From Deltaproteobacteria bacterium PRO3 (GTDB lineage Bacteria > UBA10199 > DSSB01): a DNA stretch of 43,450 nt. Below, one piece after another: positions 1,691 through 18,109 of the stretch. The DNA lies in contig SZOV01000017.1 of NCBI GenBank assembly GCA_030263375.1, positions 1 through 43,450 on the forward strand. Direction: 5' to 3'. Below the pieces are notes generated by a model. It was not told the DNA's origin, did no database searches, and was given only the letters and a program-made list of their open reading frames with translations. A program made the translations under genes and the position numbers. Positions within the stretch are counted from its first letter, which is position 1. Each line of letters opens with the position of its first letter.

Positions 1691-1792
1691 GTAGGGGCCG
1701 TTCGCGAACGGCCTCTACGGGTTTTGCGTTATGACAAATTTCGTAGAATTGCAAAATCCCTGCATTGGGGCGAACACAAGGTTCGCCCCTAC
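1691..1792. repeat. Composite palindromic repeat, copy 1
   Basis: Two palindromes flank an AT-rich spacer. The first (1691-1718) is a nearly perfect 28-base palindrome centred on TTCGCGAA with GTAG/CTAC ends. The second (1767-1789) has arms GGGGCGAAC and GTTCGCCCC around a 5-base loop and is followed by TAC. The same arrangement, spacing and partly the same spacer recur at 5133-5233. It looks like a REP/MITE-like intergenic element sitting between the divergent transferase and ABC genes. Confidence 0.8.
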
Positions 1793-5132: not shown

Positions 5133-5233
5133 GTAGGGGCCGTTCGCGAACGGCCCCTAGGAATTTTGCAAATGGCAAAACACTTAAAATTAAGAAGGCC
5201 CTGCCCTGGGGCGGATACGAGGTTCGCGCCTAC
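5133..5233. repeat. Composite palindromic repeat, copy 2
   Basis: The first palindrome (5133-5160) matches copy 1 except at a few positions near its right end. The spacer shares short blocks with copy 1 (TTTTGC, then ATGNCAAA, then CCCTGC). The second palindrome (5208-5230) is degenerate: GGGGCGGAT versus GGTTCGCGCC. The copy lies across the 5' end of the downstream gene and contains its most likely ATG (5172), so part of that gene's start is repeat-derived. Confidence 0.78.
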
Positions 5234-6344
5234 CCTTCTACGAGCGGCGCTCGCCTTGATATTTTTTCTTCCGCTCGCCGTGGTGGTCCAGCCCTCGGTT
5301 GCCGCCGACTTTGCCCCCGTCGTGCCCGGCCGCGCCTGGGAATTTCCCCGAGACCATGGGGCCCATCCCGAGTTCAAGACGGAGTGGTGGTATTTTACGG
5401 GGCACCTGCGGTCGAAGGACGGGCGACGCTTCGGCTTCCAATGGACGGTGTTTCGCAGCGCCCTGCGGCCGCTTGGCGGTCGCCTCCCCGAAGGTTCGAG
5501 CGCCTGGCGGGCCGAACAGGTCTTTCTGGGCCACTTGGCCTTGAGCGATCTGGATAAAAAGTCCTTTATTTTCGAGGAGAACGCCGCTCGGTCGGCCCTG
5601 GGGCTGGCGGGGGCGGAGCTAGGGCGTTTCAAGGTCTGGCTGCCGGGCTTTTCGGCTGAAGCTGGAGAGGAAGACTGGCAGATCCGGGCGGAGGGCCGGG
5701 ACCTGGAAATTTTGCTCCGTCTTACTCCTTCGGCCGAGGTCTTGCTCCATGGGGATCAGGGTTATTCGCCCAAATCCCAGGAGACCGGGCGGGCCAGCTA
5801 CTATTATTCCTTAACGAAATTAAGCACTTCTGGGTTGCTCCGTCTTCAAGACCAAGCTCTCGAGGTGAACGGGGAGGCCTGGATGGACCACGAGTTCGGG
5901 TCGGGGCAGCTTGCCGAGACTCAGGGCGGCTGGGACTGGATGGGGCTGCCGCTGGGCGGGAAGTCGGCGCTGATGGTCTACCGCCTGCGCGACCGGGTCG
6001 ACTCGGCACGGGATTACCTCTCCGGCACCTACGTCGACGCCGAGGGACGAGCCCATCGCCTGGCCGCGGGAGATATTCAACTAAAACCTTTGGAATATTG
6101 GACAAGCCCCCGTTCCGGCGGGAAATATCCGATCGTCTGGCAAGTCGCCCTCCCCGCCCACCGCCTCGAGCTCCGCGTTACGGCCGCCTTTCCGGACCAG
6201 GAGCTGGACACGCGGAAGAGCACGCAGGTCGTCTATTGGGAAGGCAGCGTCGCCGTTCGCGGCAAGGCGGGGGACCAGGCCATCGACTCGCGGGGCTATC
6301 TGGAGATGACGGGCTACGCGGGGGACTTCGACAAGAAACTATAG
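5172..6344 (+). CDS. AttH/CrtC-family secreted lipocalin-like protein
   Basis: The product is about 390 residues with an N-terminal hydrophobic stretch (ALALIFFLPLAVVV) ending in VAA before the mature protein, consistent with a signal peptide. Family marks of the AttH / carotenoid 1,2-hydratase (CrtC) fold are FKTEWWYFTGHL near the mature N-terminus, then MDHEFGSGQL and WDWMGLPLGGKSALMVYRL. Proteins of this family next to a LolD-type ATPase and an FtsX permease are the periplasmic partner in AttEFGH operons. No carotenoid gene is present, so I would not call it a hydratase. The open frame begins at 5109, but its first 40 or so codons are a palindromic repeat. ATG 5172 inside the repeat is the best start, and a TTG just before the hydrophobic stretch is an alternative. 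Confidence 0.82.
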   Translation: MAKHLKLRRPCPGADTRFAPTLLRAALALIFFLPLAVVVQPSVAADFAPVVPGRAWEFPRDHGAHPEFKTEWWYFTGHLRSKDGRRFGFQWTVFRSALRPLGGRLPEGSSAWRAEQVFLGHLALSDLDKKSFIFEENAARSALGLAGAELGRFKVWLPGFSAEAGEEDWQIRAEGRDLEILLRLTPSAEVLLHGDQGYSPKSQETGRASYYYSLTKLSTSGLLRLQDQALEVNGEAWMDHEFGSGQLAETQGGWDWMGLPLGGKSALMVYRLRDRVDSARDYLSGTYVDAEGRAHRLAAGDIQLKPLEYWTSPRSGGKYPIVWQVALPAHRLELRVTAAFPDQELDTRKSTQVVYWEGSVAVRGKAGDQAIDSRGYLEMTGYAGDFDKKL

Positions 6345-12986: not shown

Positions 12987-13042
12987 GTAGGGGAGAATTT
13001 GGTACAGGCGGCCCAAGAAGTCAAATCGAAATTTGACCTAAG

Positions 13043-13285
13043 TCAAACTCTCTTGAAGAGCTGAATCAGGAAGATCAGGACGAGGGCGCCGACCAAGGCA
13101 GTGACGAGGGATCCGATCGTCCCGCCCGCGGAAACGCCCAAGGTGCGAAAGAGAAAGCCGCCCACGAGGGCGCCGACGATCCCGACGACGACGTTGCCGA
13201 CCGCGCCGAAGCCGCGGCCGCGCATGATGAGGCCGGCGAGCCAGCCGGCGACAAGTCCGATGAGGATGAACCAGAACCAGTGCAT
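13043..13285 (-). CDS. GlsB/YeaQ/YmgE-family membrane protein
   Basis: This 80-residue, three-segment inner-membrane protein is typical of the transglycosylase-associated (PF04226) family. The family pattern is clear: WFILIGLVAGWLAGLIMRG, then a glycine-rich GNVVVGIVGALVGGFLF, then a last helix ending in LFKRV. The family is often stress-induced, but its biochemical role is not established and the word transglycosylase in its name is historical. AAGGAG lies five bases before the ATG and overlaps the end of the upstream thioredoxin-NHL gene (stop at 13295), so the two are probably co-transcribed. Confidence 0.92.
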   Translation of the reverse strand: MHWFWFILIGLVAGWLAGLIMRGRGFGAVGNVVVGIVGALVGGFLFRTLGVSAGGTIGSLVTALVGALVLIFLIQLFKRV

Positions 13286-13294
13286 GGGGACTCC

Positions 13295-15307
13295 TTACGG
13301 ATCAATCTTCCAACTCACCACCGCGGCGCCTTCCTTCGCGCCCGAGATCTCCGCCTCGGCGCTTTGCAGAAAACATAAGGCCTCTTTGCCCTCGCGACAA
13401 TAGTAAAAGGTGCCTTGCAGCAGGTAGCGGCCACCCGCTTGCAAGGCCGGCAGGGAGAGCTGCTTGGCCAAGAGCTCCGCGCGCGGATAGGCGCGCAGCA
13501 AGTTCGCCCCCTCCGGCTTGAGCTCGAAGAGCCGCAGGGCGCTGGGCGCCTCGGCGTTGAGCTTCCAGCCCTCGGGCAATTGCAGGGACCAGGGTATCGG
13601 GATCCCCGCAGCCAAGGCGAGCCGCTCGCGGGTCTTGAGATTGGGGAGCTTCTCGGCGGGCCGGGCGGAGGGAGCCGCCGAGGGCAGGCGCAGCTCCAGC
13701 GTCGAGACCGTCTTCGTCGCCGGATCCAGGACACGGATCGCGTGGTTATTGGTGTCGGCAACGTAGAATTTCTCGCCGACGCGGATGATCGCGTTGGGCT
13801 CGTTGAAGCGCGCCTGCTCGAAGGGACCGTCCTCGCGGCCGCGCGTCCCGTTTCCAGCCACCGTGGACAAAAGGCCGGTGCCGGGGTCGTAGCGACGGAT
13901 CGCGTGGTTGTAGCTGTCGGCGATGTAGACACCCGAGGCCTCGGCCCAGACGCCCAGCGGGTGCTGCAGCCGCGCCACGCCCTGCTTGCCGTCTTTAAAT
14001 CCGAAGTCGAAGAGGCCGGTGCCGATCAGGGTGCGGACCTTCGCCAGGAGCACCTTGTAGTCCGGCACGTAGGCAAGCTCGCGCAGCGAGCTGGTCTCGG
14101 AGTCGATAAAGTAGAGCTTACCGCCGAAGGCGCTCAGGCCGCTGGGCTGGGAGAGGGAATTGTCGGGATAGGCGCCGTCGTCGATGGACTCGCGGCCGTT
14201 GCCGGCGAGGACCGACAGGGTTTGCATCGCGAGGTCGTAGCTCCAGAGCTGGTGGACGCCGGCCATGGCGATGGCGATAGTGCTATTGTCCGGATAGAAG
14301 GCGAGATCCCAGGGGCTGGATAAGGGCGTCTGCAGCGCAGGCCAACGCTGGAGGGGCCGTTCGCGCTTGTCTCCTGTTAAGGGGGGAGCGGTCCCTACGG
14401 CTTGGGCGCCGGTACCGGCGATCGTGCTTACTTTTCCGGCCTCCAAATCCACGACGCGCAGCAGGTGATTTTCAGTGTCCGCTACGTAGAGCTTCTTACC
14501 CGCATACAACAAACCCTGCGGCCCGCGAAACCTTGCCTCCGCGAAGCTTCCGTCGCGCATTCCCGCCTCGCCGTCCTTGCCGATCTCCGTCACCACCGTG
14601 CCGTCCGGCTGCAGGCCCAAGATGCGATGCCGGTTGGAGTCGGAGACGAAGACCCGGTCCAAGTCGGGCGCGTAGGCCAGTTTGCCGGGAAAGCCGAGCA
14701 AGGCGGGCGGCGCCTTCTCCTTTTCCAGGGCCATCGGCAAGGGGTCGCTACGGAACTTCCCCGCATAGTCTTTCTTCAGCCGCAGGATGTCCTCGCGGAG
14801 CTCTCGATAGTGGCCTTCTCCGCTGTAGACGCGGTCCACCTCTCCTTCGGGATTGATGAGGAGGAAGGTCGGCCAGGCGCGGGTGCCGAAGGCGTTCCAG
14901 ATCTTGAACTCCGCGTCGTTCACCACGGGGTGCTCGATCTCGTAGCGCAGCACGGCGGCGCGGATGTTTTCCAGGTCGCGCTCGTTGTCGAACTTGCCCG
15001 AGTGGACGCCGATCACCGTCAGGTCGCGGCCGAACTCCTTCTCCAGCCGGTGCAGGTCGGGCATGACGTGCAGGCAGTTGATGCAGCAGTAGGTCCAGAA
15101 GTCGACGAGCAGGATGCGCCCGGCGAGGTCCTCGGGCTTCAGGGGGCGGGAGGTGTTGAGCCATTGCGTCTCCCTAGTCAGGGCCTGGTGGGCGGCAGAT
15201 ACCTGCCAGGCCTGTTTTGGAGCAGGCCTAGAGTTGGGGGGCGAGCAGGCGGTGGAAGCCAGCCCTAAAGTCAGGGTGAACAGTAACCCTATATTTTTAA
15301 AACGCAT
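13295..15307 (-). CDS. Thioredoxin-like/NHL-repeat lipoprotein (NHLRC2-like)
   Basis: The protein has 670 residues. The N-terminus is a signal with a probable lipobox (LASTAC, Cys21). A thioredoxin/TlpA-like domain follows (about 55-190) with the active-site CxxC as CINC (Cys75-Cys78, preceded by Cys74), and then NHL beta-propeller repeats (about 200-530), for example LYVADTENHLLRVVDL, VYIADSYNHAIRRYDP and FYVADTNNHAIRVLDP. A beta-rich C-terminal domain completes it. This is the NHLRC2 architecture found in bacteria and animals; a periplasmic thiol-disulfide role is likely but the partner is unknown. One inter-blade loop (VGTAPPLTGDKRERPLQ) is encoded by a palindromic repeat fragment at 14351-14398. 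GGAG precedes the ATG. Confidence 0.9.
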   Translation of the reverse strand: MRFKNIGLLFTLTLGLASTACSPPNSRPAPKQAWQVSAAHQALTRETQWLNTSRPLKPEDLAGRILLVDFWTYCCINCLHVMPDLHRLEKEFGRDLTVIGVHSGKFDNERDLENIRAAVLRYEIEHPVVNDAEFKIWNAFGTRAWPTFLLINPEGEVDRVYSGEGHYRELREDILRLKKDYAGKFRSDPLPMALEKEKAPPALLGFPGKLAYAPDLDRVFVSDSNRHRILGLQPDGTVVTEIGKDGEAGMRDGSFAEARFRGPQGLLYAGKKLYVADTENHLLRVVDLEAGKVSTIAGTGAQAVGTAPPLTGDKRERPLQRWPALQTPLSSPWDLAFYPDNSTIAIAMAGVHQLWSYDLAMQTLSVLAGNGRESIDDGAYPDNSLSQPSGLSAFGGKLYFIDSETSSLRELAYVPDYKVLLAKVRTLIGTGLFDFGFKDGKQGVARLQHPLGVWAEASGVYIADSYNHAIRRYDPGTGLLSTVAGNGTRGREDGPFEQARFNEPNAIIRVGEKFYVADTNNHAIRVLDPATKTVSTLELRLPSAAPSARPAEKLPNLKTRERLALAAGIPIPWSLQLPEGWKLNAEAPSALRLFELKPEGANLLRAYPRAELLAKQLSLPALQAGGRYLLQGTFYYCREGKEALCFLQSAEAEISGAKEGAAVVSWKIDP
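14351..14398. repeat. Palindromic repeat fragment inside the NHL gene
   Basis: Imperfect inverted ends (GAGGGGCCGTTCGCG at the left, GGAGCGGTCCCTAC at the right) enclose about 20 unrelated bases. The left end shares GGGGCCGTTCGCG with the intergenic repeats at 1691 and 5133. It lies in frame in the NHL gene and encodes the residues RERPLQ on the minus strand. A similar peptide is encoded by read-through of the other two copies. Confidence 0.65.
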
Positions 15308-15752
15308 TTTGGTTGCTCCGTCTTAATCTCTCTTAATCTCTCCAATCATTTACTTTCTTGGGATGGATTTCGATGCCTCTCTCCGCAAAAAGTATCCAGG
15401 CCACGCGGAATACCCGTTTCATATTCCATAATTTAGAATATTTTATTTTAATTTGTACGTATAAATTTTAGATATATTTCAAATATATAATAAAAAACAA
15501 AATAATTTCAATAACTTGGATTGATGCTTTCTTCTGGCCTCATGCTTGCATTTCCCATTCTTGAGGCCCTTGGCCCAAGGAGGAATCGATGTGGTTTTCA
15601 TCCCCATCGCCTGGCACCGGATCGTCCGGCGGCCCCTCCTATTAAATAATAGATACCTAAACCGCCGGGATCGGCCCCTAAGCGGTTCTCAATCCACGGT
15701 ATGAGGGTTAAAATGTCCTTCGACGCTTGACCCTCGGGAAACGGAGCAAAAC
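15308..15752. other. Intergenic region with AT-rich island and small ORF
   Basis: This 445-base divergent gap holds a doubled decamer (TCTTAATCTC at 15321 and 15331), a very AT-rich island (about 15420-15520) containing the dyad ATATATTT-c-AAATATAT (15472-15488), and an 18-codon ORF at 15589. The island contrasts strongly with the GC-rich surroundings and may carry promoters for both flanking genes. I cannot assign a -35/-10 pair with confidence. Confidence 0.5.
15589..15645 (+). CDS. Possible small protein or leader peptide, 18 residues
   Basis: The ATG at 15589 is preceded five bases upstream by a perfect AAGGAGG, the best ribosome binding site in this part of the window. It opens a frame for MWFSSPSPGTGSSGGPSY ending at TAA 15643-15645. 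The peptide is Ser/Gly/Pro-rich without a hydrophobic segment. It lies 107 bases before the coiled-coil gene, on the same strand. It may be a small protein, a translated leader, or a chance Shine-Dalgarno/ATG pair. Conservation would decide. Confidence 0.4.
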   Translation: MWFSSPSPGTGSSGGPSY

Positions 15753-16964
15753 ATGAATTCCGATCCGATTTCGAAAAAACAGGTCTACACCGATCGCTAC
15801 GGCGAGGTCCCCGCCCAAAACCAGCCCCAAGGCGACTACGAAGGTTTCGACGTCAACGGCGTCCAAGGCCGCCAACATCCCGACTCGATCAACCCCGAGG
15901 CCTACGTCGACATGGCCGCCGGCGAGTTGGGCGGGGGCGTGGAGGACGCGGACCTTTTTTCCGGGATGAGCGAGGAGGAGTACGTCGCCCACTATCGCAA
16001 CAACGTCGCTCCGGGCAACCGCCGGGAAGCGGAGGCGCTGATGGCGGAGATGGGGGAACGCGGCGAGGCCGTCTTCGATCCGCGCAAGGCGGTCTCCCGG
16101 CTCAAGGCCGAGCTGAACAAGTCCGAAAACGCCTTGTTCCTCGACGAGGACGCCAAGGAGCATTTCACGGGCAAGATCCGCGAGCTCGAGCGCCTCGTCG
16201 GCAAGCCGGGAACGGACCTCGGGGAGCTGCAAGACCGCATCGAAGGCTTGCAAGAGGAATTGATGGGCGCGATCGAGGAAGGCCGCGGCACCCGCCAGGA
16301 AAAGATCTCGACGATGAAGGGCATGACCGAGGACCTGCTCAAGGACGTGGAGAAATCGCGGATTCCCGAGGAGAGGAAGTCCGCGCTCGAAACGAGACTT
16401 GAAGCGCTGAAGTCCGACCTAAAAAAGCCGGACGTGGACGTCGAAGCGGCGCGAGAAGAGCTGGAGGCCATTCAAAAGGATTTCCGGAAGGAAAAGAAGA
16501 TCGACGAGATCAAGGACAAGCTGGAAACCCTGCCCTCGAAGATCCCGGGCGAAGGACACCACAAGGAGGAATCCGCCATCCTGGCCAGCAAGATCGCCCA
16601 GGCCGTGCGCACGGACAACTGGGACGAAGTCCGCAATTTCTTGACTTACTACCGAACCAACGACCTAAACAAGCCGAACAACTTCATCCCTCAGGTGATC
16701 GGCACCATCTTCATGGATCTAGCGAGCTCTGACGAGGCCAAGCTTGATGAGATCTTGTCGGTCTTCCCGGCCGAGATCCGGACCCTCATGGCCGACGTCG
16801 CTCCGGGCGACGACCCCAACAGCACAGAGCATCTCAACGAACCAACCAAGTATAGGTATTACGGCCGTCCGAACGCCACCGCCGAGCGCCTGCGCGCAAG
16901 CCGCATCGAGGAGACCGGCGAGCGTCTCGGCGAGGTCGAAGAATCCGCATTGTCGCGGGACTAA
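15753..16964 (+). CDS. Unrecognised acidic coiled-coil protein
   Basis: I do not recognise this 403-residue protein. The first 75 residues are polar and probably disordered (DRYGEVPAQNQPQGDYEGF). From about 110 to 270 it is dense in Glu, Lys, Arg and Leu with heptad-like spacing (IRELERLVGKPG, LQDRIEGLQEELMGAIEEG, LETRLEALKSDLKK, REELEAIQKDFRKEKK), which predicts a long coiled coil. A more globular part follows (about 275-360: NWDEVRNFLTYYRTND, IPQVIGTIFMDLASSD) and then a charged tail. There is no signal peptide or membrane segment. GGAG lies seven bases before the ATG. The stop overlaps the stop of the convergent AMMECR1 gene by a few bases. The composition would fit a cytosolic scaffold or a secretion-system substrate, but there is no direct evidence for either. 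Confidence 0.8.
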   Translation: MNSDPISKKQVYTDRYGEVPAQNQPQGDYEGFDVNGVQGRQHPDSINPEAYVDMAAGELGGGVEDADLFSGMSEEEYVAHYRNNVAPGNRREAEALMAEMGERGEAVFDPRKAVSRLKAELNKSENALFLDEDAKEHFTGKIRELERLVGKPGTDLGELQDRIEGLQEELMGAIEEGRGTRQEKISTMKGMTEDLLKDVEKSRIPEERKSALETRLEALKSDLKKPDVDVEAAREELEAIQKDFRKEKKIDEIKDKLETLPSKIPGEGHHKEESAILASKIAQAVRTDNWDEVRNFLTYYRTNDLNKPNNFIPQVIGTIFMDLASSDEAKLDEILSVFPAEIRTLMADVAPGDDPNSTEHLNEPTKYRYYGRPNATAERLRASRIEETGERLGEVEESALSRD

Positions 16965-17605: not shown

Positions 17606-17853
17606 CGTCTTCCGCAATAGGACCGGTTTTCTATCCATCTCAAAGTTCCAGTCAATTTATCTAAAGACTGTTGAAAATATCATCTCGATTAACTTGCCTG
17701 AAAAACCCGGGCTCGGTGCACGGCAGACGAATAATCCCAGCCCTGTAAAGAAGAGGCTATCATAGACGCGAAATCAGGGTGGCGGGAAGGGTATTCCTGG
17801 AGGGGGCGGGGGCGCCCTGATCTCCCCACAAAAACTCGGCAGGGCAATGAGCA

Positions 17854-17994
17854 CCGAAGCCGAGGGATGCCCTCTTGAAAAGCCTCGTGAGGCCCTTCCC
17901 CTTGACGCCTTGGTGCCAAGGGACTCGCGCGGCAGGGGGCGATCCCGCGCAGGGATCGCCCCCGTTTTTTCAAGAGGGCATCCCTCGGCTTCGG
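17854..17994. repeat. 141-bp nested inverted-repeat element (MITE-like)
   Basis: Perfect 28-base inverted ends lie at 17854-17881 and 17967-17994 (beginning CCGAAGCCGAGGGATGCC). Near the right end is a second perfect palindrome, GGGGGCGATCCC (17935-17946) and its complement (17952-17963) around a 5-base loop. The element encodes nothing. It has the shape of a miniature inverted-repeat element, or of a structured RNA gene. Target-site duplications are not obvious. Confidence 0.8.
17935..17970 (+). terminator. Terminator-like hairpin inside the inverted-repeat element
   Basis: A perfect 12-bp stem (17935-17946 with 17952-17963), five-base loop, one G and then six Ts form an excellent plus-strand intrinsic terminator by shape. 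No plus-strand gene lies upstream for nearly 1 kb, so it belongs to the repeat element or to an unannotated small RNA instead of an operon. Confidence 0.6.
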
Positions 17995-18109
17995 GGCGCG
18001 GCGGCGACGTGCAAAGCCGGCGCGCAAGTTCTACGGAAAACCGAAAAAAGATGCCGGCGCTTATCTTAAAGCCTCCGGAGATTTGGCGTATAGAAGTTCG
18101 AAATTAACC

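What the first reader, a model, noticed from the sequence alone, without database searches (positions are those of the whole stretch)
14351..14398. Palindromic repeat inserted in frame in a beta-propeller gene
The third, shorter copy lies inside the thioredoxin-NHL gene without breaking the frame and encodes a loop (VGTAPPLTGDKRERPLQ) just before PALQTPLSSPWDLAF, where NHLRC2-like proteins usually have a short Gly-rich loop. All three copies can encode RERPL. Protein-compatible palindromic insertions are rare (known for Rickettsia RPE elements).
Basis: partly seen in the sequence, partly recalled or inferred. Interest (0 to 1): 0.65.

Follow-up and report, generated by a model that had tools for sequence, protein, structure and literature searches.

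The report
In-frame REP palindrome in propeller gene
A small repetitive DNA palindrome sits in frame inside a thioredoxin-propeller gene and encodes an extra surface loop; the same genome has dozens of such in-frame palindromes, and their sequence forms differ between sister species at the same codon, so loops in many proteins are being rewritten by a non-coding repeat.

Summary
Confirmed and widened. Window 14350-14398 (-) is a 49-nt member of a GTAG-headed REP family. Its short form, GTAGGGGCCGTTCGCGAACGGCCCCTAC, has 60 copies in this genome and none in the reversed control. It lies in frame in a thioredoxin-NHL gene (NHLRC2/SOQ1-like) and encodes residues 304-320. About 85 homologues lack the loop. 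The sister species (90% identical gene) has a different 28-nt REP form between exactly the same bases, so the site was probably occupied before the two species split. AlphaFold places the peptide in a low-confidence loop between two strands; gene-wide dN/dS is 0.16.

The case is not isolated. In-frame REPs also lie in PheT, a HEAT-repeat protein and three positions of a roughly 94-member lineage-specific protein family, always in the same frame. All nine 49-nt copies found are coding; the 47/50-nt copies are not. Six or seven orthologue pairs carry different REP states at the same codon. In-frame REPs are already known (Rickettsia RPEs; intragenic GTAG REPs, PMC3733652), so this is a new variant of a known kind. 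The apparently coding-only forms and their turnover at fixed codons are the new part. The mechanism is inferred; RAYT involvement was not supported.

The parts
13295..15307 (-). Thioredoxin-NHL beta-propeller gene (670 aa, NHLRC2/SOQ1-like) that carries the REP in frame
   Evidence: Pfam Thioredoxin_8 and NHL; PDB SOQ1 7djj E=4e-122 and NHLRC2 6gc1 E=1e-103; fold match 6gc1/7djk; dN/dS 0.16 against the sister
14350..14398 (-). 49-nt long-form GTAG REP, frame 0, encoding VGTAPPLTGDKRERPLQ (residues 304-320; the last Q codon is completed by the two bases after the REP)
   Evidence: low-confidence loop in AlphaFold model
1691..1718 (+). Short-form REP (28 nt, 1 mismatch), intergenic
5133..5160 (+). 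Short-form REP (28 nt, 1 mismatch), intergenic
1768..1792 (-). Second REP family (GTAGGGGCGAACCTTGTGTTCGCCC), about 50 nt from the short-form REP
   Evidence: 45 + 50 matches in this genome, none in G001/G003/G004

Best explanation
The feature is a GTAG-type REP palindrome that entered the loop between two propeller strands of a thioredoxin-NHL protein in the common ancestor of this species and its sister, after their lineage split from the next member of the genus. It replaced about 6 codons and kept the frame. Because it lies in a surface loop it was tolerated and is now simply translated as VGA...RERPLQ-type sequence. Afterwards the REP at this codon changed form: it is now a long 49-nt form here and a 28-nt CTGGAC/GTCCAG form in the sister. 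The same REP-for-REP change at fixed codons occurs in a large paralogous protein family, so the most likely process is templated exchange (gene conversion or RAYT-type insertion into an existing REP) between REPs that share GTAGGGGC...GCCCCTAC ends, followed by selection for reading frame. Shown: the element, the frame, the identical boundaries in both species, absence elsewhere, the predicted loop position, purifying selection on the gene, and form differences at orthologous codons. Inferred: how the element arrived, how forms are exchanged, and that the peptide has no specific function.
For: 60 copies at up to 3 mismatches against 0 in the control. Sister gene has GTAGGGGCTGGACGTGTCCAGCCTCTAC between the same bases, CC|GTAG...|AGCG. 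Homologues lack the loop. AlphaFold pLDDT below 50 only at 1-28 and 308-318, between strands 292-297 and 331-337. dN/dS 0.16. In-frame copies elsewhere: 36 short copies at two loops of a paralogous family plus a HEAT protein; PheT and a third family position. Form switching in orthologue pairs with 83-94% identical flanks. REP DNA is 87% identical between paralogues whose flanks are 54% identical, and 84% against 44% at third codon positions (members were chosen for at most 4 mismatches, so this comparison is conditioned). All nine 49-nt copies are coding and all seven 47/50-nt copies are not.
Against: No RAYT link: three RAYT-like genes here have no palindromic REP beside them, and none was found in the 80%-complete sister, which is full of REPs. 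In the HEAT protein the REP aligns with the REP-free G001 orthologue without any indel and at ordinary identity (0.64), which an insertion does not predict. Both genomes are fragmented assemblies of metagenome type. No expression data.
Confidence: 0.72

Rival explanations
1. Two independent insertions: the window species and the sister each received a different REP form at the same loop, which is a hot spot, and there was no ancestral insertion.
For: The two forms differ strongly (49-nt long form against 28-nt CTGGAC form), and the same loops in the paralogous family also hold several REP families, including the GTAGGGGCGAAC family.
Against: The boundaries are identical to the base on both sides and both keep the frame; five or six other orthologue pairs also have both species occupied with different forms, more easily explained by exchange at an occupied site.
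Confidence: 0.15
2. The palindrome was born from coding sequence: some loops were already REP-like by protein homology and were converted into REPs in place, then copied into intergenic DNA.
For: HEAT orthologue in G001 aligns to the REP without indel (TCGACGGCCATTCTTGAACGTCCCCTTC, 10 mismatches); three of the five best REP-like 28-mers in sampled G001 DNA lie at family sites A/B. Intergenic copies are younger-looking (0.62 against 2.08 mismatches per copy).
Against: Total REP-like hits in G001 are within the range of shuffled palindromes (5 against mean 2.0, max 8). In the NHL gene the outgroup loop shows no resemblance. The same palindrome occurs in unrelated genomes.
Confidence: 0.1
3. The peptide VGA..RERPLQ is selected for a protein function (docking, processing or stability) and the DNA palindrome follows from it.
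For: The same reading (frame 0) in six positions of four unrelated protein families, although two of three frames are open.
Against: The palindrome is equally abundant outside genes; the peptide differs between sister species in the same gene (VGTAPPLTGDKRERPLQ against VGAGRVQPLQ); the loop is predicted unstructured.
Confidence: 0.05
4. Ordinary loop divergence that resembles the repeat by chance.
For: Within the window alone arm matches are close to chance, and the coding-strand hairpin is not more stable than shuffles.
Against: Close match over 49 nt to other long-form copies (2 mismatches in the 30-nt core) and a perfect-length REP at the same bases in the sister.
Confidence: 0.02

Closest known systems
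GTAG-tagged REP elements, including intragenic ones (PMC3733652; PMC2817692)
   Same: GTAG head, 20-50-nt palindrome, tens of copies, mostly intergenic with some in frame inside ORFs including tRNA synthetases; different REPs at about the same site of recB in two Xanthomonas species
   Different: Much larger in-frame share here (38 of 89 examined short copies, partly targeted sample), two fixed loops of one large paralogous family, coding-only 49-nt and CTGAAC forms, no REP beside the RAYT-like genes
Rickettsia palindromic elements (RPE)
   Same: Palindromes translated in frame inside conserved proteins, in tolerated positions
   Different: Shorter (28/49 nt), GTAG family, uncultured deltaproteobacterial lineage; sequence relation to RPE families not tested
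Coding palindromes of Nematomorpha mitochondria (PMC6649704)
   Same: Inverted repeats embedded in protein-coding genes (abstract seen)
   Different: There, long inverted repeats within mitochondrial genes; here a short dispersed repeat family shared with intergenic DNA

Membership tests
GTAG-type REP elements | 20-50-nt palindrome with a GTAG head | tested here: met
   GTAGGGGCCGTTCGCGAACGGCCCCTAC and the 49-nt form; the window copy itself keeps GTAG at one end only
GTAG-type REP elements | High copy number dispersed in one genome | tested here: met
   60 copies at up to 3 mismatches, 0 control; 38 in the sister
GTAG-type REP elements | Mostly extragenic (usual distribution, not a structural criterion) | tested here: inconclusive
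   Only a slight extragenic majority: 38 of 89 short copies examined lie in coding sequence (36 at two loops of a paralogous family; 2 in the HEAT gene). The sample was partly selected
REP-RAYT system (REPtron) | RAYT transposase gene flanked by the same REPs | tested here: not met
   Three Y1_Tnp/RAYT-like genes in this genome without a REP palindrome beside them; none found in the sister
Rickettsia palindromic element (RPE) | In-frame insertion in otherwise conserved proteins | tested here: met
   NHL, PheT, HEAT and family sites A-C
Rickettsia palindromic element (RPE) | Sequence belongs to an RPE family | not tested
   No RPE models in the tools; by anatomy it is a GTAG REP, so it is not filed as RPE
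NHLRC2/SOQ1-like thioredoxin-NHL proteins | Thioredoxin-like domain followed by an NHL propeller | tested here: met
   Pfam, PDB sequence and fold

The most novel reading that the evidence does not exclude
Some REP forms (the 49-nt form and the CTGAAC/GTTCAG form) live only in coding sequence and move from gene to gene in frame, including between unrelated proteins (a 94-member family, PheT, a thioredoxin-NHL protein). They replace one another at fixed codons, so a population of frame-adapted palindromes continually rewrites protein loops.
Probability: 0.35. Interest if true: 0.8.

Novelty: new variant of a known kind. Interest (0 to 1): 0.6.

Why it matters
Intragenic palindromes are usually treated as rare accidents. 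Here two sister species offer a natural series in which the same codons of many genes hold different REP forms while the flanks are nearly identical. This makes it testable whether REPs are exchanged by conversion or transposition, whether coding-adapted forms exist, and how non-coding repeats supply new loops to proteins, including an essential tRNA synthetase.

Tried and rejected
RAYT mobilisation as the demonstrated cause: RAYT-like genes exist but have no REP beside them and were not found in the sister. Known RNA motif: no Rfam match in 13000-16000. Hairpin kept by selection at this locus: rejected, the coding strand folds no better than shuffles. Decayed ancestral REPs in G001: weak signal only. 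MutY and shikimate kinase neighbours (L006, L143) first looked like in-frame hosts, but by inspection the REP lies upstream of the likely start.

Full report
Observation. The minus strand of 14350-14398 reads GTAGGGACCGCTCCCCCCTTAACAGGAGACAAGCGCGAACGGCCCCTCC inside the 670-aa ORF 13295-15307. The protein has an N-terminal thioredoxin-like domain and an NHL propeller. Its closest solved relatives are plant SOQ1 and human NHLRC2 by sequence and fold.

The repeat. The 28-bp palindrome GTAGGGGCCGTTCGCGAACGGCCCCTAC has 60 copies at up to 3 mismatches in this genome (G000), none in the reversed control, and 38 in the sister species G002, but none in the next congener G001 or in G003-G007. Among 385 genomes, 17 carry it at up to 2 mismatches, mostly as a CGGTTC/GAACCG variant, so the type is wider than this lineage. 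A long form has the same outer arms with 19-21 extra central bases. The window copy is a diverged member of it: in the 30-nt core it has 2 mismatches to the intact copy L142:11957. Intact long copies fold strongly (z -5.1); the window copy on its coding strand does not (z +0.3), while the sister's form does (z -4.7). The hairpin here is decaying while the frame is kept.

Lineage of the loop. In the segment around the loop, the window protein has 56 residues, the sister 49, and essentially all the roughly 85 other homologues 42-46. In DNA, the sister has a perfect-length REP, GTAGGGGCTGGACGTGTCCAGCCTCTAC, between the same bases, CC|...|AGCG. The two species therefore share an occupied site with different REP forms. 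The gene-wide dN/dS between them is 0.16. AlphaFold (mean pLDDT 87.5) puts pLDDT below 50 only at residues 1-28 and 308-318, the second inside the REP-encoded 304-320 and between strands 292-297 and 331-337.

Not an isolated case. Scanning sampled stretches of G000 showed REPs inside long ORFs, in frame 0, translated VGAVRERPLQ/R. Most belong to a family with a conserved N-terminal region of about 340 aa and variable C-terminal parts (HEAT, HTH, PAS or nothing known): 94 members in G000, 77 in G002, 69 in G001, 85 in G004, 29 in G003 and none in six more distant genomes searched. Two loops, A and B, hold REPs only in G000 and G002: short (VGAVRERPLQ), long (VGAVPPLTGDKRERPLQ), a CTGAAC form (VGTEHVQPLR) and a second REP family (VGANLVFA...RTQGSPLQ). 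Other in-frame hosts are a HEAT-repeat protein in both species, PheT (VGAGPPLSGDKREGPLQ), which gains about 9 residues against solved PheT, and a third position in one family protein. In all, 38 of 89 short copies examined are coding (36 at sites A/B; 2 in the HEAT gene); the sample was partly targeted, so this is not an unbiased fraction.

Form and frame. All nine 49-nt copies found (window NHL, PheT, L142, L230, L166 twice, L162 in G000; L239 and L249 in G002, the L239 copy with a small end deletion) are in coding frame 0; the six 47-nt copies and one 50-nt copy are not in coding-like frames. 49 and 28 are both 1 modulo 3; 47 and 50 are 2 modulo 3, so frame selection explains the split, though related copies are not independent events and the search patterns needed near-intact arms. 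The CTGAAC/CTGGAC form has three copies at up to 3 mismatches in G000 and G002 together, all coding: family site A, family site B and the sister's NHL gene.

Turnover at fixed codons. Reciprocal best pairs between G000 and G002 show different states at the same codon with 83-94% identical flanks: short/long (L158/L239), long/short (L142/L243), CTGAAC/short (L211/L231 site B), second family/short (L220/L239), degraded/short (L151/L241) and short/none (L211/L231 site A), plus the NHL gene. Among paralogues whose site-A flanks are only 54% identical (44% at third positions), REPs are 87% identical (84% at third positions) (members were chosen for at most 4 mismatches). A published parallel exists: different REPs at about the same site of recB in two Xanthomonas species (PMC3733652).

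Mechanism. The simplest account is an ancestral REP insertion-with-deletion in a tolerant loop, followed by REP-templated exchange using the common ends, with selection for frame. RAYT-type transposition into existing REPs is the alternative. RAYT-like genes are present in G000 but have no REP beside them and none was found in G002, so transposition by RAYT is not supported. Unresolved: in the HEAT gene the REP aligns with G001 without an indel at ordinary identity, and three of the five best REP-like 28-mers in sampled G001 DNA fall at family sites, which hints at older REPs or in-place conversion but is within the range of shuffled controls.

Comparison. Rickettsia RPEs and intragenic GTAG/CGTC REPs are established. 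This is a GTAG REP by anatomy; the extent of coding occupancy, the apparently coding-only forms and the turnover at fixed codons are the new features.

Noticed in passing
G000 and relatives, e.g. L166:4642-8589(-), L142:8055-11693(+), L156:579-3191(-): Lineage-specific family of about 70-94 proteins per genome with an undescribed N-terminal region of about 340 aa and variable C-terminal parts (HEAT, HTH, PAS or unknown); no Pfam or NCBIfam model for the shared region.
   Followed up: partly
window 1691-1718 with 1768-1792; 5133-5160 with about 5208-5236: Each intergenic short REP is followed about 50 nt later by a REP of the second family in opposite orientation, a BIME-like composite.
   Followed up: no
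L116:823-871 (G000:C1): 49-nt REP in frame inside pheT, and a separate short REP between pheS and pheT.
   Followed up: partly
L006:1501-1528 and L135:256-283: REP lies between an upstream coding-like segment and mutY in one continuous open frame in both species; possible translational fusion.
   Followed up: no
window 17851-17881 and 17967-17997: 31-nt inverted repeat, 97% complementary, 85 nt apart; a separate element.
   Followed up: no
L033:1081-1791(-), L034, L035: Three RAYT-like transposase genes in this genome without a palindromic REP next to them.
   Followed up: partly
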